Positions 7,801-56,081 of a DNA stretch of 64,000 nucleotides are shown here, piece by piece. The stretch's first letter is position 1. Each line of letters opens with the position of its first letter. The notes beneath the pieces are model-generated. The model did no database searches and was not told where the DNA came from. It saw only the letters and a program-made list of their open reading frames with translations. The position numbers and the translations under genes are program-made. This DNA comes from an uncultured Porphyromonadaceae bacterium (GTDB lineage Bacteria; Bacteroidota; Bacteroidia; Bacteroidales; Muribaculaceae): the NCBI GenBank assembly GCA_947175645.1, contig CAMWNP010000004.1, positions 62,001-126,000 of the forward strand. The letters run 5' to 3'.

Positions 7801-10227
7801 TCAGTCAATGACAACCCGGCTGATGCATGTTGTTGCGTCAGCGAGAGTCACGCGGATAATATAGACCGCGGGGGTCAGTCCGCTTCCGTCAATGATGTTA
7901 CTTTTTGAGGCGAGTATCACGCGTCCGTCCGCACCGATGACCTCAATGGCTTTGACACCTGATACGGAGTCAGCGGTTATGATGCGGTTTTCAACGTTAA
8001 CCACCACACCGGCAGCATCATCGGCTACCGAGGCCACACCTGAGTCTCCGGCTTTAATCAGCGACAGATTGTCTGCCACGAATGAGCCGTTCTGACTCAC
8101 GGGGTTATCGTCCTGAAGCAAACGCATACCGGCTATGTGATACGGTGTTTCATCAAGCAGTTCATGGAGTTCCACTTCAAGATAGCGCCACCCGCGGAAG
8201 TCGAGTTTACCCAGTGAGAATGATTTTTCATCCGTTCCTCCGGCAAGTACCACAAAAAGTTCATGGTTGCTGAAGTCACCGTTGACATACATTCCGAGAA
8301 TATCCCCGTCGTAGAATTGAGCATCGGATGATCCCGCATAATCCCAGAAGGCGTCTCCGCCGCGGTTTGCCTTGAATTTGTAGGTGAATATGCCGGCAGC
8401 AGTCCCGAAAAGTTTCTTGGCGGTACTGCGTGTGTAAGTGGGTTTGGCGGTCATTCCCTCGGATTTGTCAAGGTTGCCTGCATAGAGTGCGGCAGTCTCG
8501 AAATCTTCTGCCACATCACTGTTTTCTTTCACACCGCTTTCATCAATGGCCTTGAATGAGAAGTTAACATCCTGAACCATCGGGAGGTTTTCGTTATCAC
8601 GGATTTCGCCGGAGAGTTTAACATAATATGTTTCTCCTACCTGAAGATCACCCCTGACGGCAAGAACTGCGTTACCATAGTTGTTGGCCAGTTTATTGAA
8701 ACTGCTGTTACGGGTGTCAAACGCCACATTTGCGCCCTTGCTGTCAGTGATTGAAATCAGATCGTAGAAGTTTGAACCGTTGATTTTGCGGTCGAAACGG
8801 AATTCCACGTTGGGCGATGAGAAATGTATCACTCCACCTTCAGAGGGATATGTCTCGGTCAGTTCCAGACGGTTACGTCCTTGCGTACTGAACTTGAACA
8901 CGTAGGGTTGGGCCAAATTACCGTTCTGATTTTTCGAACTTGCCGTACGGGCTCCGGTTGAGATCGTAACGGTATATTCGGTGCTGGTAGCGAGCGAGAG
9001 TTCAGGAATGAACTGAGCGGAATGGTAAGAGTTGGAGAACTTGATATAGCCGTCAACTTCCGGTGATATAGTGAATGAATTCCGGAATGATTCCTCGTCG
9101 ATGTCAGTATTGAAGGTAAAATCTATTGTTGATGCACAACTTACAGGTTCGGTTACACCGTTGAGATTACATTCGGTCACCTCAAGATGTTCGGGACGGA
9201 TCATGTCAAGCGGACAGTCAAGATATGAAACCTGATTGGCGGTGACTGTGACGGGATATTCCTCGGCAGTGTAACTGTCATGGCTCACCTTGACCGTGTA
9301 TTCGCCGGGAGCGACATTGCGGAACACGAAGATGCCGTTGAAGATATTGTCGGTGGTACGTGTCTGTATCACTTTACCGCTCTTATCGCAGAGTTTGATG
9401 TCAGCACCGTTCAGCGGAAGAAGTTTGTCACGTCCGTAGGCGGTAAATGACCGCGGTATCTGCAGTTCACGGAGGTTGTGGTTGTCATAGACCAGACCGG
9501 CTACATTACCTGCGGAGAAACGGTCCTCAGTGTTGTAATATTCCATAATGGCACGAACGAAATGCCATGCTTCGAGCCACAGATAGTCATCGTTCATCAG
9601 ACGGTATGCCTCAGGGCGATGCTCATGCATTCCCCCTTCTGAAAGGAGACCCACGGTGTAAAGCGTACGGAGAACCCCGAGGCCGCCCTGCCACATATTC
9701 TGATAGAATGTGAGGTCACCGCACACATATTCAGTTTTTCTGGTCCAGTAGGGCAACTGGTTTGAGTAGAGTTCCTTCCAGAGAATCTTGCTCAGGGTGA
9801 TATTTTCAGGATAACGGGGAGTGCCGATCTCGTTCTCGCGGTAGAGCATCAGAGGGTAGTTTACAGATTCGCCGGCATTGGAATGGATAGAGAAGAAGAG
9901 ATCCACTCCGAGTTGATTTGCTTCAGCGGCAATACCGGATAGCGAACGGTCGTCGGCCTCAGTATTCTTGATTCGTGACAGATAAGGTTTGGCACCTAAG
10001 GAGTCAAGGATATGATACATGTGGAGACCCTTGTAGAGGTTACTCTTTGATTCCCAGAAACTAAGGGTGTCGTTATTAGCGAAAGGATAGATATTGATAG
10101 GACGGTCGTTTGAAGTGTAACCGCCGTGACCGGGATTTATATAAATCTTCAGGTCACTCATCTTTTTGGCTTCTGTAGCGAAAGAAACACTGAGAACAGC
10201 CATAAGGATAATGATTAGTTTTTTCAT
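7801..10227 (-). CDS. Exported N-acetylmuramoyl-L-alanine amidase with Ig-like domains and T9SS sorting tail (808 aa)
   Basis: A signal peptide (1-20) is followed by an Amidase_3 catalytic domain. Its metal ligands are visible as His34 (NPGHGG), Glu59 (FWES) and His115 (FSIHSN), with the catalytic Glu197 in LLSEGG. Amidases of this family cut the bond between N-acetylmuramic acid and L-Ala in peptidoglycan. A carboxypeptidase-regulatory-like domain follows (about 260-335), then SbsA/Big_5-type Ig-like modules (about 345-570), a beta-sandwich, and a T9SS type-A tail (about 735-808). It is last in a six-gene operon and is a diverged duplicate of the gene at 11093. The target, self wall or another bacterium, is unknown. 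Confidence 0.88.
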   Translation of the reverse strand: MKKLIIILMAVLSVSFATEAKKMSDLKIYINPGHGGYTSNDRPINIYPFANNDTLSFWESKSNLYKGLHMYHILDSLGAKPYLSRIKNTEADDRSLSGIAAEANQLGVDLFFSIHSNAGESVNYPLMLYRENEIGTPRYPENITLSKILWKELYSNQLPYWTRKTEYVCGDLTFYQNMWQGGLGVLRTLYTVGLLSEGGMHEHRPEAYRLMNDDYLWLEAWHFVRAIMEYYNTEDRFSAGNVAGLVYDNHNLRELQIPRSFTAYGRDKLLPLNGADIKLCDKSGKVIQTRTTDNIFNGIFVFRNVAPGEYTVKVSHDSYTAEEYPVTVTANQVSYLDCPLDMIRPEHLEVTECNLNGVTEPVSCASTIDFTFNTDIDEESFRNSFTISPEVDGYIKFSNSYHSAQFIPELSLATSTEYTVTISTGARTASSKNQNGNLAQPYVFKFSTQGRNRLELTETYPSEGGVIHFSSPNVEFRFDRKINGSNFYDLISITDSKGANVAFDTRNSSFNKLANNYGNAVLAVRGDLQVGETYYVKLSGEIRDNENLPMVQDVNFSFKAIDESGVKENSDVAEDFETAALYAGNLDKSEGMTAKPTYTRSTAKKLFGTAAGIFTYKFKANRGGDAFWDYAGSSDAQFYDGDILGMYVNGDFSNHELFVVLAGGTDEKSFSLGKLDFRGWRYLEVELHELLDETPYHIAGMRLLQDDNPVSQNGSFVADNLSLIKAGDSGVASVADDAAGVVVNVENRIITADSVSGVKAIEVIGADGRVILASKSNIIDGSGLTPAVYIIRVTLADATTCISRVVID

Positions 10228-10239
10228 CTGAAAATGGTT

Positions 10240-11091
10240 TTAGCGGTTAATTTTCACATTCATAAGGAACAGTTTGCCGTCAAGTGTAGAGTAGACCATA
10301 TCTCCTGTGGCAGCGCAAACGGAGAGTTCTCCCACTTTCACCGCTTCGGGTGTGAGAGGTGAGGTTTCCCCTGAGTTGATTTCTATGAGGATAAGGTTTG
10401 ACGACATGATGTTGTACCCGTCATCAACGGTGGAGACTGTAACCACGGCATCATTGCTGATCCATCCGGGGAAGTCGCCTTTGTCAGCGATTTTCTTCAC
10501 TCCGGAACCGTCGAGGTTGCATACGAACACTCCCTGAAAAGGCTCACTGAAAAGGATACGGGTGCCATCGGGGCTGAGAGTGGGCCATAGATAAGAATGT
10601 CCGTCCTCCACCGGACTGAGTTCGGTTGTCACTCCGTCGCGCACCACGTTGATGTGATATACTGCCGAACTGACAAAGGTTTCGCCGTCCAAGGCGCGCA
10701 GTTCAACATTTTTGCGTGAGGGTCCGGACAACTGTTTAACCTTTCCGGTACGAAGTGTGACAACACGTACGTCGCGGTTCAGAAGGCCGTCAACCAGAGT
10801 CGCTGTTTGGTAGTACACCTTATCCCCTTTTTGTGAGAATACGGGAGCGAAGCCCGCAGCAGCCGATTCATCTAATGTGAATGTCTTGCCGGTGGCGACG
10901 TCATAGGAATAAAGGCCTGTGTGGTCAGTCGTTGAAAAGAGAAGCATGGAACCGTCAGGGCTTAGTACAGGATGGTAGGCCTGACGGTCGATATGCAGTT
11001 CCTGCGCTGAAGATATTTCAACGTCAGAGGCTGTCGCCGCCATAGAAATGGCGGCAGCAGCCAGTGTAAGTAATAGTCTTGTTGGTTTCAT
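10240..11091 (-). CDS. Exported PD40 (TolB-like) beta-propeller protein (283 aa)
   Basis: A signal peptide (about 1-21) is followed by repeated PD40 strands such as HPVLSPDGSMLLFSTTD and LWPTLSPDGTRILFS. These indicate a TolB-like propeller of five or six blades that would bind a partner, not catalyse. There is no sorting tail and no enzyme motif. It lies 1 nt after the amidase at 11093 and 12 nt before the amidase at 7801, so each amidase has a propeller gene beside it. The related gene at 13522 is clearly a paralogue. A chaperone, adaptor or inhibitor of the amidase would fit, but this is inference. Confidence 0.82.
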   Translation of the reverse strand: MKPTRLLLTLAAAAISMAATASDVEISSAQELHIDRQAYHPVLSPDGSMLLFSTTDHTGLYSYDVATGKTFTLDESAAAGFAPVFSQKGDKVYYQTATLVDGLLNRDVRVVTLRTGKVKQLSGPSRKNVELRALDGETFVSSAVYHINVVRDGVTTELSPVEDGHSYLWPTLSPDGTRILFSEPFQGVFVCNLDGSGVKKIADKGDFPGWISNDAVVTVSTVDDGYNIMSSNLILIEINSGETSPLTPEAVKVGELSVCAATGDMVYSTLDGKLFLMNVKINR

Positions 11092-11092
11092 G

Positions 11093-13513
11093 TTAGTGTT
11101 TGATGATTACTTTCTTTATTGAGACACCGCCGGAGGTGGCAAGTTTCACTTTGGCGAGATAAGTTCCGTCGGCTACACCGCTGACGTTAAGCACATTTCC
11201 GCTGCATCGGGCAACTGTTGCGCCTGACATTGATATGAGTTCGATAGAACCGATTGTCGCATCGCCGTTTGCAATGAGATATTCCGATGCCGGATTAGGA
11301 TGGATAGAGATGGTCGCTATCTCTATAGACTCTACGCTGTCATCGTCTGTGGCAACCATCATGTTGTCCAGTCGTATGGTTCCGTTCTTGCTCATGGCAC
11401 TTGGCACCTCAACAATCTTGATACCGGTCAGACGATAGTCCGCGCCACCTTCCAGAGTAGACATGTCAACCTTCACCTCTTTCCAACCGAGGAAATCAAG
11501 TTTGCATATCATGGCGTAGGATACAGTGGTTTCAGAAGTGAACTGGGCATAGAGTTCATTTCCGGATAGGTCACCGTAAACGTATGTCATGACACTGCTT
11601 GCATCGGTAACAACCTTGTCTGCTGCTTCACGGCTGAAAAGAACTTCACCTTTGTCGTCGCTGTTCTTGCCGAATCTGTATTCAATAGCCGCCGAAGTGG
11701 TTCCGAAAAGAAGTTCCTTTTTATCGGCTGAGATTGAGGCGCTCTGCACGTTAATATTTTCATCTTCCAGGAGGGTGTATGCAGCCACGTTATCGAAATC
11801 TTCTATCGCAGAGTGACCTGACTTCTCTTCTCCGGCGTCTATAGCGGTGAATTCCACCTCAGTGGTATTCTGAAGCGTTATACCATCCTTGTCAGATATC
11901 TCCTTGGAGATGGTCACATAATATTTATCACCTATGTTCAGCGCCTTTGTGAAGGGGATACGAACATAACCGAAGTCATCACCCGCCTTACTGTACTTCA
12001 TGTTGCGAGTGTTGAGCGAAACTGAGTTACCGGAGGAATCCTTCACGAGAAGTTGCTTGAGGATAGGCGATACGAAGGGGTGCTTGTCAAGTCGGATTTC
12101 AATAGCCGCACCTTTATAATGCACCTGATCGCCATTCTTGGGATAGTGACCTATAAGTTGCATGAAATCGCGGTCAGATGTGTGGAACTTGAATGTCACC
12201 GGTTTGCCCATTTCCATTCCGCTGTTATGCTGGGCCGTACCGTCAAGCGTTACAGTGTATTCAGTATCGGTGGCATAAGGTTGTGTTGGAACGAACGACA
12301 TTGTGAAATTGGCATCGGACCACACGAACTTACCCTCGACAGCGGGAACGATTGAAAAAGCGTTCTCAGTGGTTGCCTCATCCATGTCCCAGTTGAAGTT
12401 CAAAATAATAGGTGCATTGCAAAGAACATATTCGTCACCCTCATTCCATACCGGTGAATAGGATAACACTTCAGGAGGAGTATTACGTATCTTCTTGAGT
12501 TGGAAATTCTTATAAGTGGCTTTATCGGCTTCCACCACAACCTGACATTCCTCAGGAGTATGCTGCTCCTCGGAAACACGGAGTGTGTATGTGCCCGGAA
12601 CAAGATCAACGAAAGCATACACACCGTTGTAGAGATTATCTGTGGTGTACTCAGCAAGAAGATTTGACCCTGACTCGTCATAGAGTTCTATTCTGGCATT
12701 GTCGATTGCCACATATCGGTCATCCTTGAACATGACGTAGGAGGCGTCACGCAACAGGCGGGAGTCATTGATACGACCAACGATGACACCCTTGGTATCA
12801 CCTTCCAGACCGAACATCTGGTCCACAGCCTTGCGGAAATGCCATGCCTCGAGCCATTTGAACTCACGGTTCATCAAACGGTATGTCTCGGGAATATAAT
12901 CATGGAAAGAGCCTTCGGAAAGCATACCGTCGATTGTGAGGGTACGGAGAACACCCAGACCCACCTTGTCACCCCAGGAGTGATAGAACGACCAGTCACC
13001 GCGTACGGACAGGTTGTTGGTCCACACTGTGGCTTCGTTTTCATAGAGATGGGGACCGAGAATATTCGCCATCTTGAGGTTTCCGGGGCGAACCGGCTCA
13101 TTGTCATAACCACGGTAAAGCATCAGCGGGAAGTTCACGCGTGATGACGTACCTGTGGCATTGGAGTGGATGGAGAAGAAGAAGTCCGCTTTGGTCTTGT
13201 TAGCGAGTGCATCGATGGTGGAAAGTCCGAGGTCATCCGCTTCAGTGTTGGTTACACGTGACATGTAGACTGTCATACCCTTTGCCTCGAGCATGTCACG
13301 GAGCATGAGGCCTTTGTCAAGGTTGGAGTTAGATTCCCAGAAACCTTCGGGATCACCTTGCTTGTAGGGATAAATTACAACATTACGGTCGTTCGATTCG
13401 TGACCGCCGTGACCGGGATTGATATAGATTGTCAGATCCTGAGGATTGACGGCATGAGATGCGAGCGCACATGCCACGGCGCTTATTGCTAAAGATGATA
13501 ATTTTTTTCTCAT
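11093..13513 (-). CDS. Exported N-acetylmuramoyl-L-alanine amidase, paralogue of the 7801 gene (806 aa)
   Basis: The domain order matches its neighbour: signal peptide, Amidase_3 domain, regulatory-like Ig domain, SbsA-type modules, beta-sandwich and T9SS type-A tail (about 735-806, IHPNPASEYL onward). The catalytic residues are intact: His35 in NPGHGG, Glu60 in FWES, His116 in FSIHSN and Glu200 in MLSEGS. Both copies are therefore probably active peptidoglycan amidases. The proteins differ along the whole length, so the duplication is old. The spacing is 8 nt after the propeller gene at 13522 and 1 nt before the one at 10240. Confidence 0.88.
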   Translation of the reverse strand: MRKKLSSLAISAVACALASHAVNPQDLTIYINPGHGGHESNDRNVVIYPYKQGDPEGFWESNSNLDKGLMLRDMLEAKGMTVYMSRVTNTEADDLGLSTIDALANKTKADFFFSIHSNATGTSSRVNFPLMLYRGYDNEPVRPGNLKMANILGPHLYENEATVWTNNLSVRGDWSFYHSWGDKVGLGVLRTLTIDGMLSEGSFHDYIPETYRLMNREFKWLEAWHFRKAVDQMFGLEGDTKGVIVGRINDSRLLRDASYVMFKDDRYVAIDNARIELYDESGSNLLAEYTTDNLYNGVYAFVDLVPGTYTLRVSEEQHTPEECQVVVEADKATYKNFQLKKIRNTPPEVLSYSPVWNEGDEYVLCNAPIILNFNWDMDEATTENAFSIVPAVEGKFVWSDANFTMSFVPTQPYATDTEYTVTLDGTAQHNSGMEMGKPVTFKFHTSDRDFMQLIGHYPKNGDQVHYKGAAIEIRLDKHPFVSPILKQLLVKDSSGNSVSLNTRNMKYSKAGDDFGYVRIPFTKALNIGDKYYVTISKEISDKDGITLQNTTEVEFTAIDAGEEKSGHSAIEDFDNVAAYTLLEDENINVQSASISADKKELLFGTTSAAIEYRFGKNSDDKGEVLFSREAADKVVTDASSVMTYVYGDLSGNELYAQFTSETTVSYAMICKLDFLGWKEVKVDMSTLEGGADYRLTGIKIVEVPSAMSKNGTIRLDNMMVATDDDSVESIEIATISIHPNPASEYLIANGDATIGSIELISMSGATVARCSGNVLNVSGVADGTYLAKVKLATSGGVSIKKVIIKH

Positions 13514-13521
13514 ACCGCTGA

Positions 13522-14322
13522 TTATTTTAGAAGTTCCAGATTCATAAGTAACAGGCGACCGTCAATGGTGTTGCACACGACTTTGTCACCCGCGGCTGTT
13601 GCCGTGGGATTCATTGTCATAGATTCGGGACGAGTAAGTTCCGTGAAGTTCTCCCCCTGAAGATCCATTGCCACAATCTGTGACGAACTGAACTGATGGC
13701 CGTCATCTGTGGCGCGCATGGCGGCTATAGCGTTGTTTCCCAGCCATACAGGACACTCGAAATTTCCCGGCTGACCGAGCACTTTACCGTCAAGATCAGT
13801 AATCACCACCCCTTTTCCGGCAGCGAAAAACATAACCTTCGTACCATCAGGAGAGAGTGATTCCCACAGATATCCGGCATGGCTTTCCACCGGGCTATAG
13901 GCTTTTTCCACACCTTTTCGTGTGATGTAAAGCACTGAACCTTCAGTGCGCACGCTCACACCGTTGCCACTTTTCACCTTTCTGCCAAGAGCACGTGAAC
14001 GGGTTGTGTAGGCATTGCGTCCGGTCTCACCCTCTTTCTTCACTTCATAACGTATTCCGTCAGGAGTAAATTCGGGAGCGAAGCCTGCACGCTGTTCGTC
14101 AGAGAGGCGCGTTGTCACTCCGTCATTGAAGTCATGGAGTTTCAGTCCTTTGTAATTTACCGACGTGAACAGAAGCATGGAACCGTCAGGACTTATGACG
14201 GGATGGTACATTTCTGATTCCACACCCCTCAGAATCGGCTCCGTAGATTTGACCCTTGCCACTTGTGCGGAGGTTGCCATACCTATGGCCAACATAGCAC
14301 CGATTATGATTGATTTCTTCAT
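13522..14322 (-). CDS. Exported PD40 beta-propeller protein, paralogue of the 10240 gene (266 aa)
   Basis: The N-terminus is a signal peptide (MKKSIIIGAMLAIGMATSAQ). PD40-type strands repeat through the protein (HPVISPDGSMLLFTSV, WESLSPDGTKVMFF, LLLMNLELLK). It aligns over its full length with the 10240 product, including the shared GFAPEFTPDG/GFAPVFSQKG segment. It lies 4 nt downstream of the phosphodiester glycosidase gene and 8 nt upstream of the amidase gene. No enzymatic motif is seen, so a binding role is most likely. Confidence 0.82.
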   Translation of the reverse strand: MKKSIIIGAMLAIGMATSAQVARVKSTEPILRGVESEMYHPVISPDGSMLLFTSVNYKGLKLHDFNDGVTTRLSDEQRAGFAPEFTPDGIRYEVKKEGETGRNAYTTRSRALGRKVKSGNGVSVRTEGSVLYITRKGVEKAYSPVESHAGYLWESLSPDGTKVMFFAAGKGVVITDLDGKVLGQPGNFECPVWLGNNAIAAMRATDDGHQFSSSQIVAMDLQGENFTELTRPESMTMNPTATAAGDKVVCNTIDGRLLLMNLELLK

Positions 14323-14326
14323 ATTT

Positions 14327-16870
14327 TTATCTGATTATTAGTTTCTTAACTGCCGAACCGACTGCTGTGCGCACATTCAGAATATACATTCCGCCGCTAA
14401 GTCCGGGGATATCTGTTTTCACTTGAGTTCCTGATGCTGCCAGGGATACAACTTTCACTCCGGTAACGGAATAAAGTTCCACACCCTTTATCTCACAATC
14501 GGCCGATATCTCAATCACGCCGCCGTCAGCAATCACCCTGGCGGTCACACCTGAATCACCGGTCCGGTCCGCCATAACTCTGTCAACACCTGCCTGATTG
14601 TTTTCATATCGTGCGAAAAGGTCGTTCAGACGTATGTTCTGTTCACCCTTATAAGAATTGTCAACAGGAACGTTGAACTGGATGTAGTGCAGACTGTAGG
14701 GATAGTTCAGGACATCCTCCGGGTCACCGGCGGCCGACAATGGAATTTTCACCGTATAGGTCTGTCCGGCCATGAACGCTTCATCCTCAGGATTGATATC
14801 GACGCGGTTGGTGCGGGTGTGAAGGGCCGTACGCAGGTCAACATTGATGCTTGACACATTCACCGATGGAGTGAATGAGAACAAAACTTCATCAGGAAGT
14901 GAATAGAAAGTGACTGATTTTGTAAGTTTCATGTAGGGAGAACGCGCACCCGAACCGTATGTGAACTTGACCAAGCCATCCTCTGATACCGTAACCTTGC
15001 TGATACCTGATGAACCGGTGGCCGCCCATGTATTCCAGTCTGTGTGATGCATCTCAGGTTCAGGAGCAATCTCCACCTTGACGGTTGAATTATCGGAATA
15101 CTCGCTTATCTTGCAAGAGATACAGGTGGTTCCCTCTGCAACCCCGCTCAGCACACCGTCATCGATTCGTGCCACCTCACTATCCTCAACACTCCATTCC
15201 ATAAGTGTGGAATCATAGTTGTAGAGGGTACCGTTAAGTTCGGCAGTCACGCCGATGGGATATTTTCGCGTGCCGTCAATAAGTATATTCTTTGAAGATA
15301 TTGTCATCTCGGCATTCTCTACAACCATTTTTTTTGACACGCTGACATTGCCCACGCTGGCAGTGAGATTGCCTGATGCAGGTTTTCCCGATGCCTGGAA
15401 ACGCATGCCGTCGCAAGAGCCCAGCGAAGGATCGCAACTGAGTGTGAACCCTTTGTAGTCACGGTCGATAATGGCTCCGTATTTATTGAATGCAACCACA
15501 CGGGGCTGATAACTTGCAGCCACGGGACACTCAAGGTTATAGTCAAAGAACTCCAGGCGTGCCACCTCGTTATCGACAGGAGCGATACTGTAGTAGAGCA
15601 TGCCGTTTGCAACCGCACGCGGAGTACCTTCGGTGGTACGGTTTGCAATAGCACCCTCAACATATATCTCGGCAGAACCGCCCGCATCCATATTAACCAG
15701 ATTTACACATCCGAAATGCTTCATTATGTAACACATCACGTCAGTGGGACAACCTGATGACGAACCATAATTATCTCCTGCCTTGTCAATGACGATAGAA
15801 TACATTGTTTTGCCGGTGGCATCAGACCCATAAGCACAGCGGCTGTAAACCTGGCTGTTGTATGCTTCGGTGGTGTTACCGCTGAGAAGTTCACCATCCT
15901 TCATCACCGTACAGTTACCGCCCACGAGGTTCTCCAGTTTCATGGGCTGTCCGTCAACGGCGTCTTTCCAGCCGTATTCAACAGTCACTTTGTCACCCTC
16001 GGCAAGTTTGTTGAGAGCGGTGGCGAAACTACCGCGACCCAGAAGCACCGCATCGGCATTACCGCGCAATCCACGGCCCGCATCAGGTTTGACTTCTGTA
16101 ACCACAAATGAGATAGGTTCGGCCGAACGCCATGTCTGGCCCTCCTCAAGTTTCAGATAAACCTCAGTTGACACACCTTCCTGAATCACGAAATGCTTGT
16201 CAATCTGATCCACCGGGAGGAACTGACGGTTGTCAGGATAGTAAGAGTTATACAAAGCCAGTTCTTCGTTGCGGCATACTTTGTTGTATTGTGTGATTTC
16301 GAGATTTCCGGTTTTGTCTGATGAAAGGATACTGTAGAACGGATACGAGCCCACGCGGAAATTCTTGTCGGCATCCACGGCAACAATACCGGTGTGGGTC
16401 CAGCCGTGATCCCACTGGTCATATTTCATGTTGGTTTCGGTGATGATCTTGCCGTTACGCATGTTTCCGTTATATGTACTTCCTATGAGATAATCGGAGA
16501 AAGGAGCCTGATTTGAAACACACCAGAAGTTTGCATTGTTACCTGCCACGGCTTCATGTCCGGGTGAACTCTGGCGTTCCGCAGCAGCCACAAGCCGTTC
16601 CGTACCGTAGAGTTTATCATTAGCCTGGGTGGTCTCTATCCGGTTGTAAGGATTGGTCATGTCAATCTTCACGATGTGGACATTCAGAGGATATTCCGCC
16701 AGGCGGAAACGGGTATAATGTATCCCCGGTCCGAGATCGCGGTCGGAGATGTAGGTGATCTCGTAATCCTTCCCTTTGATGTCAATTGACTCGGCTCCTG
16801 CAGTCACCGCTACACCGGAGGTTCCCGCAAGAAACACTCCGAGCATGATTCGTTTCAGAATAATTTTCAT
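14327..16870 (-). CDS. Exported phosphodiester glycosidase (NAGPA-type) with Big_2 domain and T9SS tail (847 aa)
   Basis: A signal peptide is followed by a phosphodiester glycosidase domain (DUF2233/NAGPA, to about residue 430) with the hallmark VNMDAGGSAEIYVEG and the later PRAVANGML segment. The founding enzyme removes GlcNAc from a GlcNAc-1-phosphodiester (the lysosomal uncovering enzyme); bacterial relatives are thought to act on sugar-phosphodiester links in glycans. A Big_2-type Ig domain lies at about 530-605, then a beta-sandwich, then a T9SS type-A tail (about 775-847). Its start overlaps the stop of the upstream paralogue by 4 nt. Confidence 0.85.
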   Translation of the reverse strand: MKIILKRIMLGVFLAGTSGVAVTAGAESIDIKGKDYEITYISDRDLGPGIHYTRFRLAEYPLNVHIVKIDMTNPYNRIETTQANDKLYGTERLVAAAERQSSPGHEAVAGNNANFWCVSNQAPFSDYLIGSTYNGNMRNGKIITETNMKYDQWDHGWTHTGIVAVDADKNFRVGSYPFYSILSSDKTGNLEITQYNKVCRNEELALYNSYYPDNRQFLPVDQIDKHFVIQEGVSTEVYLKLEEGQTWRSAEPISFVVTEVKPDAGRGLRGNADAVLLGRGSFATALNKLAEGDKVTVEYGWKDAVDGQPMKLENLVGGNCTVMKDGELLSGNTTEAYNSQVYSRCAYGSDATGKTMYSIVIDKAGDNYGSSSGCPTDVMCYIMKHFGCVNLVNMDAGGSAEIYVEGAIANRTTEGTPRAVANGMLYYSIAPVDNEVARLEFFDYNLECPVAASYQPRVVAFNKYGAIIDRDYKGFTLSCDPSLGSCDGMRFQASGKPASGNLTASVGNVSVSKKMVVENAEMTISSKNILIDGTRKYPIGVTAELNGTLYNYDSTLMEWSVEDSEVARIDDGVLSGVAEGTTCISCKISEYSDNSTVKVEIAPEPEMHHTDWNTWAATGSSGISKVTVSEDGLVKFTYGSGARSPYMKLTKSVTFYSLPDEVLFSFTPSVNVSSINVDLRTALHTRTNRVDINPEDEAFMAGQTYTVKIPLSAAGDPEDVLNYPYSLHYIQFNVPVDNSYKGEQNIRLNDLFARYENNQAGVDRVMADRTGDSGVTARVIADGGVIEISADCEIKGVELYSVTGVKVVSLAASGTQVKTDIPGLSGGMYILNVRTAVGSAVKKLIIR

Positions 16871-19413
16871 TTTATGATGATTTTTTTTGATTTTACACTG
16901 TTTTTACTTTCCACTGTCAGCAGATAAACTCCATTGGCACTGTCAGGAACCACCATCTGCGCACTCTTTCCGGAAGCATACGCATGAGCGACCGTACGTC
17001 CGCCAAGATCATGCAGGGTAACGGCTTTCAGAGATTCTCCTGATGTGACAGTGAGAAGATCTCCCGCTCCCGGAACAGCCGGTTCTATGGTTATATCCCC
17101 GAATCCGTTGTCACTGACGCTTTCAACACCCTGCATGTTGTTGTCATACTCGGCGCGAAGGCCGTCCAGTCTGATGGTCTGGCTTCCTTTGTAGGATGTG
17201 TTTGCGGCGATATTGAACTGTATATAATATAATATATAGGGGAAACTGCCTATATCCTCTTTCCCGGGCATCGGGATCTCCACCGTGTGGGTTTTGCCGG
17301 CGGCAAACAGATCTCCTTCAGCGGGGGTTATGTCCACTCGGTTCGTACGGCTGTGCTGCGGAGTCCTCAGGTCGACGTTTATTCCTGACACATCAACCGA
17401 AGGGGTGAACGTCAGCAACAGACGGTCAGGCAAGGAATAGAACTTAATGGTCTTCGCTATCTTCACGAAGGGTGTGCGTGGAGAACCATAGGTGAACTGA
17501 ATGGTACCGTCACCACCCATACTCACAGCCGTCACACCGGTGGTGCCACTCGCTTTCCATCCGTCAGAGCCACCCTCTGAAACGGCTTCAGGGGCTATTT
17601 CAACAGTGACATCACACTCATCAGAGAACTCACCCACCGTGCAGCGGACCTTGGCCGTACCCTCGGCCACTCCACGGAGCACGCCGTTCTCCACGGTTGC
17701 CACCTCCTGATTATCGCTCTCCCACGCAAGTGTGGTATGATCGTATGTGTAGGTGTGTTGCCCCACGGTAGCATTAACCTCCATGGGATACTCGCGGGTG
17801 TTGTCAATGAGAATATTCTTGAGGCGCAAGGCAATCTGCGCTCCCATCACTTTCATCTGCTTCCTGACGGTAACCGTGCCGGAGGTGGCCGTAAGTTCTC
17901 CCTCCGCCGGACTTCCGGCGGCGGTGAACATGGTCCCGTCACAATTTCCCACTGACGGGTCGCAACTCAGCGTGAAGTCGCGGTAGTCATCATTGATGAT
18001 ATCTCCGTAGCGGTTATAAGCAATGATCCGTGGAGCGTATGTTCCGTAAACAGGGGCTTCCAGTTCATAATCATAGAATTCCAGACGGGTCACCTCATTG
18101 TCAGCGGGTGCGGTTGAATAAACCAGCATTCCGTTGGCCACCGCGCGCGGAGTAGACTCCGTGGTCTTGTTGATGATACGGTCACCGACGAGCATCTGAG
18201 CCGATCCTCCTGCATCCATGCTCACCAGATTCGAACATCCGAAATGCTTCACTATGTGGCACAGGCCCTCCGTGTTGATTCCCTTTGATGCGCCATAGAC
18301 AGGATCGGTGGCCATGTCGATTACACAGATGAACAGTTTGCGGCCGTCAGCGCTTGAGCCGTAGGAGCACCGGCTGTAGGTCATGGGGTTATAGTTTCCC
18401 ATATTGTCAGGATTATAGTTCTGTGACGTCAGTTCTCCATCCTTCATGACAAGAGCGTTGCCCCCCACAAGGTTATCTATGACAGGCACTGTGCCTTTAC
18501 CACCCTTTTCACTTGACCATCCCAGTTTTATCTTTATTGACTCTCCCTTCTGCAGACCGGCGAGTTTTGTACCCTTGTCACCGCGTGCCACCAGTACGGC
18601 GTCATAGTCGCCTCGTTTACCCGGACCCGAGCCGGTTACAATCTCCTCTACAGTAAAGGTCATGTTCTTACCTGTAGCCCAGGTCTGATTTTTTGCGAAC
18701 TTCAGATATACTTCAGTCGACACACCGCTGACAATGTTGAAAGTTCTGCCGTCTGATGAAAGATCAGCAGGCATGAAACTCATATTTTTATCGTAGTAGC
18801 CTGTGTAAAGACAAACCTCATTGTCACGGCAGATCTTGTTTACCTGATATATGTCGATGTTACCAATGTTGTCCGTCTTTATCTTGCCGAACCATGGCCA
18901 AGCCTCGCAGTGAAGGTTTCGGTCACTGTCGACAAAGAATATCCCTGTTTCGGTATATCCACCGTTCCATTGATCGGAGTTCATGTTTGTTTCATCCACA
19001 ATCTGCCCGTTACGTACGCATCCAACCACATGCACCCCGTTGAGCAACGGCCCGTAAGGAGCGAAACTTGAAGTCACGAAAAAATTGGCATTGGCGCCGC
19101 CCAGCACCTTGTGACCCTCTCGGGTCTGTCGGGCTGCGGCATTCACCAGATACTCTGTGCCGAACTGTGTTTCATTTGCAATCGTCGTCTCGATGGTGTT
19201 GTACGGATTATCCATATCCATGGTGATGATATTGACGTTAAGCGGATATTCCGGCAATCTGACACGCGTGTAGTGCACCCCCGGTCCGAGATCACGCTCA
19301 ATCAGCCTGGTCAGTTCGTAGGTTTTTCCACTCACTTCAATGGATTCCGCCTGTGCTGCCACGGGAAGCAACAGTGCTGCCGCAAAGGCAGATCGGAGTA
19401 TTTTTTTTATCAT
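16867..19413 (-). CDS. Exported phosphodiester glycosidase (NAGPA-type), first gene of the operon (848 aa)
   Basis: The N-terminus MIKKILRSAFAAALLLPVAA is a signal peptide. The NAGPA domain contains VSMDAGGSAQMLVGD and TPRAVANGMLVYS, so the conserved acid and glycine-rich motif are kept. A Big_2-like domain (about 535-610), a beta-sandwich and a T9SS type-A tail ending KNSVKSKKIIIK follow. It is a full-length paralogue of the next gene (14327), diverged throughout, with the stop overlapping the next start by 4 nt. As promoter-proximal gene it probably sets expression for all six genes. The likely location is the cell surface or outside the cell. Confidence 0.85.
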   Translation of the reverse strand: MIKKILRSAFAAALLLPVAAQAESIEVSGKTYELTRLIERDLGPGVHYTRVRLPEYPLNVNIITMDMDNPYNTIETTIANETQFGTEYLVNAAARQTREGHKVLGGANANFFVTSSFAPYGPLLNGVHVVGCVRNGQIVDETNMNSDQWNGGYTETGIFFVDSDRNLHCEAWPWFGKIKTDNIGNIDIYQVNKICRDNEVCLYTGYYDKNMSFMPADLSSDGRTFNIVSGVSTEVYLKFAKNQTWATGKNMTFTVEEIVTGSGPGKRGDYDAVLVARGDKGTKLAGLQKGESIKIKLGWSSEKGGKGTVPVIDNLVGGNALVMKDGELTSQNYNPDNMGNYNPMTYSRCSYGSSADGRKLFICVIDMATDPVYGASKGINTEGLCHIVKHFGCSNLVSMDAGGSAQMLVGDRIINKTTESTPRAVANGMLVYSTAPADNEVTRLEFYDYELEAPVYGTYAPRIIAYNRYGDIINDDYRDFTLSCDPSVGNCDGTMFTAAGSPAEGELTATSGTVTVRKQMKVMGAQIALRLKNILIDNTREYPMEVNATVGQHTYTYDHTTLAWESDNQEVATVENGVLRGVAEGTAKVRCTVGEFSDECDVTVEIAPEAVSEGGSDGWKASGTTGVTAVSMGGDGTIQFTYGSPRTPFVKIAKTIKFYSLPDRLLLTFTPSVDVSGINVDLRTPQHSRTNRVDITPAEGDLFAAGKTHTVEIPMPGKEDIGSFPYILYYIQFNIAANTSYKGSQTIRLDGLRAEYDNNMQGVESVSDNGFGDITIEPAVPGAGDLLTVTSGESLKAVTLHDLGGRTVAHAYASGKSAQMVVPDSANGVYLLTVESKNSVKSKKIIIK

Positions 19414-19557
19414 GATAACTAAGGTTGGCTGCAGTCGTTTACGTCAGTATATGACTTTGGCAGCCTTGACTGGTTTATATTCCGTTTATTCATTAACTTG
19501 CCCCGGGTCAGTATTCAATTGAGGACAAGGTCAGGGTTAGTTCTTTTTATTTATGTG

Positions 19558-19565
19558 CAAATATA
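19558..19565 (-). promoter_or_regulatory. Candidate -7 promoter box for the six-gene exported operon
   Basis: The minus strand reads TATATTTG, matching TAnnTTTG. It lies 145 nt upstream of the first gene. No convincing -33 box was found at the usual distance. Confidence 0.4.
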
Positions 19566-19669
19566 ACCTTAAATTTTTATTTCAGATAATTAAAAATAGT
19601 TAACTTTTGTTATAAGCCCTGTTTTTTACAGTAAATCGCTCAATTACACAAATTTTTCCATAATTATAG

Positions 19670-19698
19670 TTGACGTTCTGAAAAAATTACTAACTTTG
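19670..19698 (+). promoter_or_regulatory. Promoter of serC-serA
   Basis: TTG at 19670-19672, an 18-nt spacer, then TAACTTTG at 19691-19698. This fits the Bacteroidetes -33/-7 pattern. It predicts a leader of about 50 nt before the serC ATG at 19757. Confidence 0.65.
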
Positions 19699-19756
19699 CA
19701 ACGCTATCCTCTCTCCAAATCAACCTTATTGAACAACAGTAAAACCAACAACAGTC

Positions 19757-20830
19757 ATGAAGAAGCACAATTTTTATGCCGGTCCTTCAATTCTGAGCCA
19801 GTACACTATCAAGAATACCGCTGACGCAGTTTTAAACTTCGCTGACATGGGGCTCTCCATTCTTGAAATTTCTCATCGTTCAAAACAGTTTCAGGCAGTT
19901 ATGGACGAAGCGGTGGCTTTGTTCAAGGATCTACTTGAAATCCCTGAAGGTTACTCCGTACTTTTCCTCGGAGGTGGCGCGTCACTCCAGTTCTGTCAGG
20001 TGCCCATGAACCTTCTTGCCAAGAAAGCAGGATACCTTGACACAGGCGTGTGGGCTTCAAAGGCAATAAAGGAAGCGAAACTATTCGGTGAGGTCGACGT
20101 AGTGGCTTCTTCAAAAGATCGTAACTACAACTATATTCCTAAAGACTACACAGTTCCGCAGGATCTGGATTACTTCCATTATACCTCCAACAACACAATC
20201 TACGGAACTGAAATCCGTAAGGACCCCGACGCCGGAAACGTTCGCCTGGTTGCCGACATGTCGTCCGACATCTTCTCTCGCCCGGTTGACGTGGCTAAAT
20301 ATGACCTGATTTATGGTGGCGCTCAGAAAAACCTCGCCCCCGCAGGGGTTACTTTCGTTATCGTGCGTGACGAGGCTCTGGGACATGCTGACCGTGCAAT
20401 CCCCACCATGCTCGACTACCGTACACACGTCAAGAAAGGCTCCATGTTCAACACTCCCCCCGTGCTACCCATCTTCGCCGCTCTGCAAACCCTGAAGTAC
20501 TACAAGCAGTTAGGCGGAGTTCGTGAAATTGAGAAATCATGCATCGCCAAGGCATCAAAACTCTATGAAGCGATAGATTCAAGCCGTATGTTCGTCGCCA
20601 CCGTGCCTGACCACGCTGACCGCTCGCTGACAAACGTATGCTTCGTGATGAAACCTGAATATGCCGATCTGGAAAAATCATTCATTGACTTCGCTACCGA
20701 GAAAGGAATGGTTGGAATCAAGGGACACCGCGACGTCGGCGGCTTCCGTGCATCGCTCTACAACGCTCTTCCCATGGAAAGCGTCGATGCCCTGATTGAA
20801 TGTATGAAGGAATTCCAGAACAACAAATAA
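19757..20830 (+). CDS. serC: Phosphoserine aminotransferase
   Basis: SerC transfers an amino group from glutamate to 3-phosphohydroxypyruvate, and also serves the pyridoxal phosphate pathway. The 357-residue length is normal. The PLP lysine is Lys191 in [11 protein letters not shown], and the N-terminal FYAGPSILS and HRSKQF motifs are characteristic. It is followed 11 nt later by serA, so the two steps of serine synthesis are encoded in one transcript driven by the 19670-19698 promoter. Confidence 0.97.
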
Positions 20831-22360: not shown

Positions 22361-22765
22361 ATGCGAAAAATCAACAAAATCATCATCCACTGCTCAGCGA
22401 CTCCCGCCGGCAGGAACGTTACTGTTGACGACATCGACCGGTGGCACCGGCAGCGGGGCTTCAACAGCATCGGCTATCACTATGTGATCTATCTTGACGG
22501 TACAATACATGCCGGACGTCCTGAACATATTCAGGGAGCGCACTGCAAGGGACAGAACGCCCACAGCATAGGCGTATGCTATATAGGCGGCTGCGACTGC
22601 CACATGAAACCGGCCGACACCCGGACCCCACAGCAACGCGAATCTCTTATAAAACTTGTCGACTTGCTGCTAAACCGTTATCCTGACGCCTCAGTCCACG
22701 GCCATAATGAATTCACCGCCAAGGCTTGTCCCTCATTCAATGTAGAAAAAGAATTCCGCCGATGA
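22361..22765 (+). CDS. T7-lysozyme-like N-acetylmuramoyl-L-alanine amidase (134 aa)
   Basis: An Amidase_2 domain fills the whole protein, the size of phage T7 lysozyme. The expected zinc ligands are present: His10 (IIIHCSAT), His115 (HGHNEF) and Cys123 (KACPSF), with the GYHYVI tyrosine-histidine pair at 39-40. It would cut the MurNAc-L-Ala bond. There is no signal peptide, so export would depend on the upstream holin-like protein. Its stop overlaps the start of the lipoprotein gene (ATGA), as expected for a lysis cassette. Confidence 0.88.
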   Translation: MRKINKIIIHCSATPAGRNVTVDDIDRWHRQRGFNSIGYHYVIYLDGTIHAGRPEHIQGAHCKGQNAHSIGVCYIGGCDCHMKPADTRTPQQRESLIKLVDLLLNRYPDASVHGHNEFTAKACPSFNVEKEFRR

Positions 22766-53885: not shown

Positions 53886-56081
53886 TTACTTCACTGTAAC
53901 CTTTTTAGTGAAGTGGGCGGTTTCACCAACGATTTCAAGGATGTACACTCCTTTGTTGAGGTCTGATGCATCCAGATCCATCTCTGATGATGATGACACC
54001 GCTGATTTCACCATAGCGCCACTGAGAGAGTATAGACGGGCGGTATAGCCGCTTTCACCTCCGACGGTGATGTTGAACATCTTGCCGGTTTCGTTGGTGA
54101 TGATAAGGCGAAGATCCTCATCTTCATAGACAGTGCCTACTCCGTCAATACCTAAAAGTTGCTTGGCACCGTTTATGGCACTTAATTTTCCGGCACCCCA
54201 CTGCACGGGATTGCCTGCCAGAACGCAGTTGTCACGGACAGAGGTTTTGTTGAACAACTGTATCACCTCGCTACGGGTCAGTGTAGGTTTAATCTGCAGC
54301 CAGAGGGCAACCGTACCGGCGGCGAAAGGTGTGGCCATTGAAGTACCCTGCTCGCAGAGCCAGTAGTTGTTGCGTCCGTTGGCATCGGCTGTGGCACATA
54401 CATACTGCGCTTCTGCCTTAGCCTCGGCTGAACCGCTATCCATGAAGGGTGTGCTGTAAGATGAGATGATACCCATACCGGGAGCACACACGTGAGGAAG
54501 ACTCTGACCGTCGAAAGTGGTTCCGAATGAGGAGAAGTCCGATACATAGCCCAGGTCTTTCTCGCTGTAATCATTGTAAGCGATAGTCGTCGGACTATTG
54601 TTTCCGAACACGCCCCATGACAGGCGGGTGTTATAAGAACCTATGGCTATTGCTTTTGAGGCGGTTGCCATTTCATTGATATTCTCCAGGTTTGTTCCGT
54701 TGTCATATCCTGCCAGCCCGAAGTTGGTCATCTGTCCGGCGTTGACTGTGGCAAGGAGTGTCTGACCGGCGTTACCATCCACAATAAACAGCGGAATAAG
54801 GTTTCCGGTGGTTGAAAGGCTTACGGTGAAAGTGACGTATGAACGGTTGTTGGCGCTGCGCACACCGCTTTCTATCACCACGTATGAACTGGAGTTGAAA
54901 GCATTGTCAAAGTAGATGTTATGCTCATAGGAGGGAGAGGTGTAACCGCTGCCGGCAATAGTGACGGACTGTGTCTTGGATGAGTTCACCTCACGGATTA
55001 TGTTTACCTGACCGCTGGTTTTGTCATATACCGCGAACTTACCGGTGATCACTCCATTATTGTTAGCCCAGAATTCAACCATGTTGCCGGCCACTTGCGT
55101 GGCGAAGGTCTTGATGGATTTGTCTGCGGAAGTAAGTGTTTTTTTCAGTGACATGTTCACGTCGCCTGAGTTACCTGCCGCAATGAATATCAGCGCACCG
55201 CTCTCAGCCACCTTGTCAAGTGCCAGACAGAAGTCACCCGTTCCGTCGTGTGACCCGCTAACCGAACCGAGCGAGAGGTTGATAACCGCGGGCTTACCCT
55301 GTTCCTTGGCGTAATCCGCTATTTTCTGACATGCCAGCAGGATGTTTGCGTTTGACAACTGACTACCGGAAAGATACAGGTCGGCCTCACGTGCCACGCC
55401 GTAGTAAGGTACATTTCCTGTGACAATGGCAGGCTGCGGACGTCCGAACACCGACTTCGTGCCCACTATCTTGCCCGTGCCGTTATACGCGCCGCCCATG
55501 ATGCCCGCACAGTGCGTACCGTGGGTCTTCTTGGAATTGTCAGTGGTGGCGGCGGACATATTTTCCTCAGTGTACAACTTGTTGGTGTCAGGAATATAGA
55601 AGCGTTTTACGCGGGAATTCCCCTGGGCATCGCAGAAGTTGATATGATTGGGATCCAGACCGGTGTCGAAGATACCTGCAACAACACCCTTGCCATTGAA
55701 GGCGGCGCTGAGTCCGGTACCTGCCTGCACCTGATCAACTCCGGTGTCCTTACGGGCTATGTCAAGACAGGGTGTGGCCATTTCTCCGAAGGAAATACGT
55801 TCTACTGATTCTTTTCCCGACAGAAGTTCCACCTCATCGAGCGAGAGTTCCACTATGGCCATATCCTCTCCGAAGGTAGCCAGAACAGGATAACCTTCCA
55901 AATCCTCAACCGTATATCCCGCTGCCATTTTGACAAGAGCGTTAATCATCTCAGCACCACGGGTGGGATTGAGTTCATGCTCCATCATGAGCATACGTCC
56001 GGCAGGACTGATCTTCGCACCGTCAGCAAACATTGTCAGCGATGCGGCAAAACAAAGTGCACCTATGAAAATTTTCTTCAT
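53886..56081 (-). CDS. Exported subtilisin-like serine protease (S8) with T9SS tail (731 aa)
   Basis: After a signal peptide (about 1-20) and a propeptide-like segment, the S8 domain carries Asp139 (IFDTGLD), His187 (KKTHGTHCAG), the oxyanion Asn304 (AAGNSG) and Ser581 (GTSMATPFAAG). The catalytic triad is complete, so it should be an active secreted protease. An insert of about 150 residues separates Asn304 from the Ser region. The C-terminal 75 residues (about 657-731, ending FTKKVTVK) form a T9SS type-A sorting domain. It has its own promoter (56156-56187). Confidence 0.92.
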   Translation of the reverse strand: MKKIFIGALCFAASLTMFADGAKISPAGRMLMMEHELNPTRGAEMINALVKMAAGYTVEDLEGYPVLATFGEDMAIVELSLDEVELLSGKESVERISFGEMATPCLDIARKDTGVDQVQAGTGLSAAFNGKGVVAGIFDTGLDPNHINFCDAQGNSRVKRFYIPDTNKLYTEENMSAATTDNSKKTHGTHCAGIMGGAYNGTGKIVGTKSVFGRPQPAIVTGNVPYYGVAREADLYLSGSQLSNANILLACQKIADYAKEQGKPAVINLSLGSVSGSHDGTGDFCLALDKVAESGALIFIAAGNSGDVNMSLKKTLTSADKSIKTFATQVAGNMVEFWANNNGVITGKFAVYDKTSGQVNIIREVNSSKTQSVTIAGSGYTSPSYEHNIYFDNAFNSSSYVVIESGVRSANNRSYVTFTVSLSTTGNLIPLFIVDGNAGQTLLATVNAGQMTNFGLAGYDNGTNLENINEMATASKAIAIGSYNTRLSWGVFGNNSPTTIAYNDYSEKDLGYVSDFSSFGTTFDGQSLPHVCAPGMGIISSYSTPFMDSGSAEAKAEAQYVCATADANGRNNYWLCEQGTSMATPFAAGTVALWLQIKPTLTRSEVIQLFNKTSVRDNCVLAGNPVQWGAGKLSAINGAKQLLGIDGVGTVYEDEDLRLIITNETGKMFNITVGGESGYTARLYSLSGAMVKSAVSSSSEMDLDASDLNKGVYILEIVGETAHFTKKVTVK

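What the first reader, a model, noticed from the sequence alone, without database searches (positions are those of the whole stretch)
7801..19413. Six-gene exported operon in which every component is duplicated: phosphodiester glycosidase, propeller, peptidoglycan amidase
The order on the minus strand is NAGPA, NAGPA, PD40, amidase, PD40, amidase, with gaps of only -4 to 12 nt. Both amidases keep all metal ligands and the catalytic Glu. Both NAGPA proteins keep the DAGGSA motif. The four enzymes end in T9SS type-A tails, so they should be surface-attached or released. The pairing suggests a coordinated system that removes sugar-phosphodiester groups and cuts peptidoglycan stems, for example on other bacteria or on self wall during remodelling. 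I know of no named system with this set. That it attacks teichoic-acid-decorated walls is pure inference.
Basis: partly seen in the sequence, partly recalled or inferred. Interest (0 to 1): 0.75.

Follow-up and report, generated by a model that had tools for sequence, protein, structure and literature searches.

The report
Exported front end of wall-recycling pathway
A gut-type bacterium carries a six-gene set of secreted enzymes that probably strips cell-wall material so that it can be taken apart and reused, and many relatives carry such genes directly in front of a known kind of wall-recycling cluster.

Summary
In detail: six collinear minus-strand genes (NAGPA, NAGPA, PD40, amidase, PD40, amidase; gaps -4 to 12 nt), catalytic residues intact, T9SS tails on the four enzymes. 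The set is conserved. In the 79 best-matching named loci (of 542 found) every testable amidase has PD40 directly upstream or fused to it: 105 adjacent, 19 single-chain fusions, 1 found by tblastn, 1 at a contig edge. PD40 and amidase trees share the same paralogue classes. In 38 of 47 loci with 8 kb or more downstream, same-strand recycling genes follow: MurNAc-type kinase, Golvesin protein, GT2, DUF4922, SpoIID, AmpG, NamZ, the order of the Tannerella forsythia muropeptide operon (partly matched by name). The window's genome holds that cluster plus MurK and MurQ homologues on another contig. Best reading: exported front end of peptidoglycan salvage. The amidase with PD40 denudes glycan; NAGPA removes a phosphodiester-linked sugar, plausibly the alpha-GlcNAc-1-P anchoring wall polymers to MurNAc (inference). 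Duplication was not one event: NAGPA doubled at least four times separately. No activity was tested.

The parts
16867..19413 (-). NagA: NAGPA-domain (phosphodiester glycosidase) protein, 848 aa, T9SS type-A tail; first gene
   Evidence: PF09992 41.8 bits; TIGR04183 34.8
14327..16870 (-). NagB: NAGPA-domain protein, 847 aa, T9SS type-A tail; overlaps NagA by 4 nt
   Evidence: PF09992 52.7 bits; TIGR04183 32.0; 3ohg E 9.6e-5
13522..14322 (-). PD40a: free-standing TolB-like propeller, 266 aa, signal-peptide-like start, no T9SS tail; partner of AmiA
11093..13513 (-). AmiA: Amidase_3 + CarboxypepD_reg-like + Big_5 x2 + T9SS tail, 806 aa
10240..11091 (-). PD40b: free-standing TolB-like propeller, 283 aa, no T9SS tail; partner of AmiB
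7801..10227 (-). AmiB: second Amidase_3-type protein, 808 aa, four metal/catalytic residues kept, weak T9SS tail; Amidase_3 score just under the Pfam cut-off
   Evidence: 25.7 bits, cut-off 27; TIGR04183 24.5, cut-off 23
19414..19756 (-). 343-nt region upstream of NagA, shared with the divergent gene at 19757; holds a TAnnTTTG-like element at 19558-19565, a motif no more frequent in the window than chance
   Evidence: 20 matches, 15.95 expected

Best explanation
The six genes are the exported front end of a Bacteroidales peptidoglycan-salvage pathway. AmiA and AmiB, carried through the outer membrane by the type IX system, cut stem peptides off peptidoglycan at or outside the cell surface, giving denuded glycan. 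Each amidase works with its own TolB-like propeller (PD40), which stays in the periplasm or travels with it and acts as a dedicated partner (folding, docking or substrate capture). NagA and NagB hydrolyse sugar-1-phosphodiesters on the same wall material, most simply the glycopolymer attached at MurNAc C6, so that the glycan becomes accessible. Enzymes encoded elsewhere in this genome, but contiguous in many relatives, finish the job: SpoIID cuts denuded glycan, NamZ trims MurNAc, AmpG imports disaccharide, MurK and MurQ convert MurNAc to GlcNAc-6-P. Shown by sequence: gene set, intact residues, T9SS tails, constant PD40-amidase pairing and fusion, linkage to the recycling cluster in relatives, presence of that cluster in the host genome. 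Inferred: every catalytic activity, the NAGPA substrate, the role of PD40, the extracellular site of action.
For: Gene content and residues. Adjacency: of 126 amidase ORFs in the 79 named loci, 105 have PD40 directly upstream on the same strand, 19 are PD40-amidase fusions, 1 (L141) has PD40 found by tblastn, 1 is at a contig edge; the 16 PD40-bearing regions fetched from 12 genomes all show the pair (two of these regions overlap and one is identical in sequence to L098). Fusion: PD40 at about 1-295, amidase at about 316-640; Pfam on 10 of the 19 gives Amidase_3 in 10 and PD40 in 4, NCBIfam a TolB match in 5 of the 10. Same paralogue classes in both trees: the identical 15 AmiB-type rows (100/100 amidase, 99/94 PD40), and 7 small-class pairs from 6 loci; Mantel r 0.80, 0 of 2000 permutations. 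Linkage: a same-strand recycling gene lies downstream of the last amidase in 52 of 79 loci and in 38 of the 47 that extend 8 kb or more; loci with each gene: KIN 46, Golvesin 44, GT2 35, DUF4922 29, SpoIID 23, AmpG 9, NamZ 3 of 79. The kinase of L098 matches K1058 with MurNAc (8ow7, E 6.6e-115). T. forsythia order: K1058, xanthan lyase, GT, GT, LytB, AmpG, YbbC, MurT, MurK, MurQ (PMC5388701 figure legend and passages, PMC10465942 passages). Own genome, contig C10: Golvesin-GT2-DUF4922-SpoIID-AmpG-NamZ, MurK-type kinase (8ow9, E 1.1e-98), MurQ (4lzj, E 7.3e-73); GldM/PorM on C13.
Against: In the window's own genus the operon is not next to the cluster: no window ORF got a recycling label and L064-L066 show none, so the link is by relatives and by co-residence in the genome. 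Of 79 loci 27 show no recycling gene; 8 of these have under 1.1 kb after the amidase, but 9 have 9.8 kb or more and still none. NAGPA occurs in only 25 of 79 loci, so it is not needed for the core. The PD40-amidase fusions lack T9SS tails (10 of 10 scanned), which points to a periplasmic job in that lineage. K1058 turns MurNAc over slowly and its authors doubt that MurNAc is its natural substrate (PMC10465942). Equivalence of Golvesin with 'xanthan lyase', DUF4922 with the second GT, and NamZ with YbbC is by name, size and position, not by sequence comparison. The 79 loci are the best of 542 by similarity to AmiA, so they favour close relatives. No activity, expression or localisation data.
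Confidence: 0.72

Rival explanations
1. The set is an antagonism or predation weapon: surface amidases and phosphodiester glycosidases lyse Gram-positive neighbours, and feeding is secondary. PD40 would protect the producer during export.
For: Four T9SS tails; amidase plus phosphodiester hydrolase suits thick walls; NAGPA combined with TelC and sometimes NlpC/p60 domains in Bacillota is read as inter-bacterial conflict (PMC12419801 passage).
Against: Recurrent neighbours in relatives are import and sugar-salvage genes; among the 30 largest neighbour families I saw no toxin or immunity family, judged by eye from one example each; PD40 is fused in cis to the amidase in 19 loci, odd for an inhibitor.
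Confidence: 0.12
2. Self-wall turnover: the amidases act mainly on the producer's own peptidoglycan and products are recycled. T9SS tails only place them in the envelope.
For: Fused PD40-amidases without T9SS tails look periplasmic; PD40 resembles TolB (62 of 66 members match the model); SpoIID acts on denuded glycan at a division septum (PMC6635528 passages).
Against: 18 of 18 amidases in A1 carry the T9SS tail; PD40a relatives were found in only 60 of 199 same-family genomes, so it is not a core division function.
Confidence: 0.12
3. NAGPA and the amidases target different polymers: NAGPA removes phosphodiester-linked sugars from capsules or exopolysaccharide, and only the PD40-amidase part is about peptidoglycan. 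This is compatible with the best explanation for the amidases.
For: NAGPA is missing from 54 of 79 PD40-amidase loci (some end too early to tell: 25 of 74 with a gene upstream have it); the own genome has two further NAGPA genes with no amidase in the 16 kb and 9 kb fetched.
Against: NAGPA next to, or one gene from, PD40-amidase is kept in other families of the order (L154, L156, L158-L160, L162) and was doubled in place at least four times.
Confidence: 0.3

Closest known systems
Tannerella forsythia muropeptide/MurNAc salvage operon (K1058, xanthan lyase, two GTs, LytB, AmpG, YbbC, MurT, MurK, MurQ)
   Same: In many relatives the window genes lie directly 5' of a kinase-Golvesin-GT2-DUF4922-SpoIID-AmpG-NamZ row in the matching order (PMC5388701 and PMC10465942 passages). 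Kinases matched by sequence, AmpG and SpoIID/LytB by family model, the rest by name, size and position. The window's genome has the cluster with MurK and MurQ homologues.
   Different: NAGPA, PD40 and the T9SS amidase are not part of the operon in the passages read; in the window genus they lie elsewhere. T. forsythia's own region upstream of K1058 was not examined.
[quoted passage not shown] DUF2233 structure 3ohg
   Same: PF09992 over cut-off, DxGGS motif, weak sequence match to 3ohg.
   Different: About 850 aa with T9SS tail and long extra regions; DAGGSA instead of DGGGS in most; substrate unknown.
Amidase_3 N-acetylmuramoyl-L-alanine amidases (AmiC, CwlV, 4rn7)
   Same: Metal ligands and catalytic Glu kept; profile matches to these solved enzymes.
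   Different: Big_5, CarboxypepD_reg-like domain and T9SS tail; constant TolB-like partner gene or domain.
TolB of the Tol-Pal system
   Same: Propeller repeats (TIGR02800 matched by 62 of 66 PD40 members; TolB chains).
   Different: Only the propeller part of the model, far below the TolB cut-off; encoded with an amidase. Pal linkage was not examined.
GHL10 enzymes (Cwp19; E. coli DigH)
   Same: A GHL10 protein stands within two genes of NAGPA in L098, L158, L159 and L160; that of L160 best matches Cwp19 (5oq2, E 7.1e-68). DigH is a denuded-glycan hydrolase (PMC12288456 passages).
   Different: Not in the window operon. Its T9SS tail is over the Pfam cut-off only in L160, under it in L098 and L158, not seen in L159. 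That DigH is a GHL10 protein is recalled, not in the passages read.

Membership tests
N-acetylmuramoyl-L-alanine amidase (Amidase_3) | Profile match | tested here: met
   AmiA 49.4 bits over cut-off 27; AmiB 25.7, just under
N-acetylmuramoyl-L-alanine amidase (Amidase_3) | His/Glu/His metal ligands plus catalytic Glu | tested here: met
   H35, E60, H116, E200 in both and in 138 of 138 complete ORFs aligned; assignment by alignment to 4rn7
N-acetylmuramoyl-L-alanine amidase (Amidase_3) | Cleaves the MurNAc-L-Ala bond | not testable with these tools
   needs purified protein
NAGPA phosphodiester glycosidase | PF09992 match and D-x-G-G-S motif | tested here: met
   match to 3ohg
NAGPA phosphodiester glycosidase | Hydrolysis of a sugar-1-phosphodiester | not testable with these tools
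   no assay
T9SS type-A cargo | C-terminal sorting domain, and a T9SS in the genome | tested here: met
   TIGR04183 over cut-off in 4 of 4 enzymes, AmiB barely and not listed for AmiB in the genome search; GldM/PorM 550 bits, other T9SS parts not searched; PD40 proteins have no tail
TolB (Tol-Pal) | Full TolB model (N-terminal domain plus propeller) | tested here: not met
   33.4 and 25.9 bits against a TIGR02800 cut-off of 343; matches start at model position 190-192 of 418
T. forsythia-type murein salvage operon | Contiguity with the kinase-to-NamZ row | tested here: not met
   not in the window genus; met in relatives: same-strand recycling gene downstream in 52 of 79 loci, 38 of 47 with 8 kb or more
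T. forsythia-type murein salvage operon | Cluster present in the genome | tested here: met
   G000:C10; AmpG matches TIGR00901 at 1.6e-39 but under that model's cut-off; MurT not identified
Polysaccharide utilization locus | SusC/SusD pair beside the enzymes | tested here: inconclusive
   the recurrent ~1000-aa neighbour is Golvesin_C, not SusC; not every neighbour was scanned

The most novel reading that the evidence does not exclude
NagA/NagB are peptidoglycan 'uncovering enzymes': they hydrolyse the alpha-GlcNAc-1-P-6-MurNAc bond that anchors wall teichoic acid and related glycopolymers, the same kind of bond (alpha-GlcNAc-1-phosphate on a sugar C6) that human NAGPA cuts on mannose. They thereby detach wall polymers so that a PD40-guided amidase, SpoIID and NamZ can dismantle Gram-positive walls for salvage. 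PD40-amidase is a new two-part wall hydrolase in which a TolB-like propeller is the built-in partner.
Probability: 0.22. Interest if true: 0.85.

Novelty: new variant of a known kind. Interest (0 to 1): 0.6.

Why it matters
Gut Bacteroidales live among thick-walled Gram-positives, and the T. forsythia passages that I read do not name the enzymes that release usable fragments from whole walls. This links a conserved exported module to that pathway and names testable enzymes, including candidates for cutting wall glycopolymers off peptidoglycan; the two search listings aimed at that step (the latter showing 10 of 25 papers) showed me no such enzyme. The PD40-amidase fusion makes a partner role for a TolB-like propeller directly testable.

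Tried and rejected
Structure prediction of PD40 and NAGPA: machine busy, then switched off; no fold comparison was made. Promoter and terminator scans gave nothing above shuffles (8 promoter-like sites against 16.7 expected, 9 terminator-like against 11.9); TAYNTTTG 20 matches against 15.95 expected. The SusC/SusD reading of the ~1000 and ~486-aa downstream neighbours was dropped after Pfam: Golvesin_C and GT2. PD40 as an inhibitor or immunity protein: lowered because it is fused in cis to the amidase, not excluded. 'All components duplicated as one event' rejected by trees. K1058/MurK typing by a regular expression failed (49 of 52 unmatched) and was dropped; E-values were used instead. The co-occurrence test used cut-offs chosen after seeing the tables (amidase 1e-30, NAGPA 1e-87; PD40 all matches): of 199 genomes amidase 62, PD40 60, both 60; NAGPA 52, with PD40 50; read it as rough, and note that any amidase or PD40 paralogue counts. 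The AMI profile was trained on ORFs of 600-950 aa and may include some fusion proteins; Pfam on 10 fusions is independent of it. One of the 19 fusion ORFs (L096) runs off its contig start. Of 20 order genomes with a PD40 hit, regions of 12 were fetched; the 8 with weak hits (E 6.5e-9 to 9.7e-4) were not. Papers: passages or abstracts only were seen for all papers cited; PMC11488536, PMC11382707 and PMC8807736 were looked into and added nothing decisive.
Full report
What is there. Six ORFs on the minus strand, 7801-19413, in the order NAGPA, NAGPA, PD40, amidase, PD40, amidase, with spacings of -4, 4, 8, 1 and 12 nt. Pfam and NCBIfam confirm the families. The soft point is AmiB: its Amidase_3 score (25.7) is just under the cut-off (27) and its T9SS tail (24.5, cut-off 23) was not among the 12 tails that a six-frame search of the genome listed, although it keeps all four metal/catalytic residues. 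The two PD40 proteins have no tail. The genome has the T9SS core protein GldM/PorM; other T9SS parts were not searched. The flanks look like serC and serA on one side and DUF177, fabH and era on the other; this is my reading of the translations, not a scan.

It is conserved. A search of 199 same-family genomes found AmiA relatives in 99 at E <= 1e-3 and PD40a relatives in 60; each of the 60 also has an amidase match at E <= 1e-30, and 2 of the 62 genomes with such an amidase lack PD40 (cut-off chosen afterwards). These 79 loci hold 126 amidase ORFs: 105 have PD40 directly upstream on the same strand, 19 are fused to PD40, one lies at a contig edge, and in the last (L141) an antisense ORF had hidden a PD40 gene that tblastn found. 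In the wider order PD40a relatives were found in 20 of 393 genomes. The 16 PD40-bearing regions that I fetched from 12 of those 20 genomes all show the pair, the own genome's third pair among them; two of the 16 overlap and one is identical to L098.

PD40 and amidase are one module. In 19 loci a second copy is a single chain, PD40 at residues about 1-295 and amidase at about 316-640 (one runs off its contig start). Pfam on 10 of the 19 sees Amidase_3 in 10 and PD40 in 4, near its cut-off; NCBIfam sees TolB in 5 of the 10; for the others PD40 rests on my own profile (262-291 bits over the 19). None of the 10 has a T9SS tail. The amidase tree (70 rows) has an AmiB clade of 15 rows with 100/100 support; the PD40 tree (66 pairs) has a clade of exactly the same 15 with 99/94. 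A small-amidase class (7 unfused pairs from 6 loci) also recurs intact. Partner distances correlate, r 0.80, 0 of 2000 permutations, which shared ancestry also raises. So each amidase keeps its own PD40. How AmiB joins the rest deep in the tree is weakly supported (91/33).

Duplication has more than one history. The split between AmiA and AmiB, with their PD40 partners, is one old event; other copies (a large 1286-aa class, the small and fused class) come from separate events. NAGPA doubled separately in the window genus (both copies within a 7-row clade, 97/99, with the single copy of L066), in the L067-L075 lineage, in L076 and in L142. Gene conversion could mimic this, but the window pair is only 49% identical.

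What it is next to. In relatives the amidase is followed on the same strand by recycling genes in 52 of 79 loci, and in 38 of the 47 loci with 8 kb or more after the last amidase. By gene: kinase in 46 loci, ~1000-aa Golvesin_C protein 44, GT2 35, DUF4922 29, SpoIID 23, AmpG-like 9, NamZ-like 3, the last ones limited by locus length. L082 and L083 hold the whole row on one strand, NAGPA (a 3' fragment at the contig start), PD40, amidase, kinase, Golvesin, GT2, DUF4922, SpoIID, AmpG, NamZ (cut by the end of the locus). Against this, 9 loci with 9.8 kb or more downstream show none. NAGPA occurs in 25 of 79 loci; 14 of the 25 also show recycling genes. The L098 kinase matches T. forsythia K1058, solved with MurNAc, at E 6.6e-115 (8ow7). 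In T. forsythia K1058 lies directly upstream of the co-transcribed cluster xanthan lyase, GT, GT, LytB, AmpG, YbbC, itself upstream of MurT, MurK, MurQ (passages and a figure legend of PMC5388701; passages of PMC10465942). I matched the kinases by sequence and AmpG and SpoIID/LytB by family model; Golvesin = xanthan lyase, DUF4922 = second GT and NamZ = YbbC rest on name, size and position. T. [quoted passage not shown] The window's genome has Golvesin_C, GT2, DUF4922, SpoIID, AmpG (TIGR00901 E 1.6e-39, under that model's cut-off) and NamZ (PF07075, PF20732), then a MurK-type kinase (8ow9, E 1.1e-98) and MurQ (4lzj, E 7.3e-73), on contig C10, unlinked to the window operon on C4.

Mechanism. 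Amidases make denuded glycan, and SpoIID proteins act on denuded glycan (PMC6635528 passages). In other relatives a GHL10 protein lies within two genes of NAGPA (L098, L158, L159, L160); that of L160 best matches Cwp19. NAGPA fits if it removes what blocks the glycan. Wall teichoic acid is attached by alpha-D-GlcNAc-1-P to the C6-OH of MurNAc (PMC7831098 passages), and the human enzyme removes GlcNAc from GlcNAc-1-P on mannose C6 (PMC12024695 abstract and passages). The match of bonds is my inference. Against it: in the teichoic linkage unit the GlcNAc carries ManNAc, so an exo-acting pocket would not fit; and most loci have no NAGPA. For PD40, a TolB-like propeller without other parts, a partner role is most likely; the cis fusion speaks against a pure inhibitor.

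Where it acts. T9SS tails on 18 of 18 aligned amidases and 32 of 42 aligned NAGPA proteins, two of the 42 from outside any operon, argue for the outside of the cell; the tail-less fusions argue for a periplasmic version in one lineage. Feeding on foreign wall material is favoured over self-turnover because the set is patchy (PD40a in 60 of 199 genomes).

Verdict. A real, conserved module, not named in the listings I saw, that reads as the front end of a known salvage pathway: new variant of a known kind. The activities, the NAGPA substrate and the PD40 role remain inference.

Noticed in passing
G000:C5:29347-34115 (L149:5347-10115): A third PD40-amidase pair in the same genome, with a 1286-aa protein of a separate amidase class (100/100 clade). 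It keeps the four catalytic residues but gives no Amidase_3 hit at E 0.001.
   Followed up: partly
L082 and L083: Ten-gene single-strand row from NAGPA (fragment) to NamZ (cut by the locus end); L083 is Candidatus Limisoma faecipullorum.
   Followed up: yes
L099, L100, L105 and 16 other loci: Natural PD40-amidase fusion proteins of about 645 aa, with lysine-rich ends and no T9SS tail in the 10 scanned.
   Followed up: partly
G000:C5:51944-52435 and G000:C15:60980-61459: Two further NAGPA genes with stronger PF09992 scores than the window's, with no PD40 or amidase in the 16 kb and 9 kb fetched (L152, L153).
   Followed up: partly
L098:2324-3784 and L160:2831-4288: A ~486-aa protein without any Pfam match stands just upstream of NAGPA in Barnesiella and in a distant family; the two are homologous (29% identity, E 3e-44).
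   Followed up: partly
window 53886-56081 minus: A subtilase (Peptidase_S8) with a T9SS tail, another T9SS cargo in the window.
   Followed up: no
window 22361-22765 plus: A small Amidase_2 protein (134 aa) followed by a short ORF with a hydrophobic end, reminiscent by eye of a phage-like lysis pair.
   Followed up: no
G000:C10:8783-23937 (L150, L151): Own-genome recycling cluster through MurQ; the only PF01869 match in the genome (under the cut-off) is the MurK-type kinase, so the K1058 type seems absent at that sensitivity. The 392-aa DUF5009-like protein before MurK stands where MurT is in T. forsythia.
   Followed up: partly
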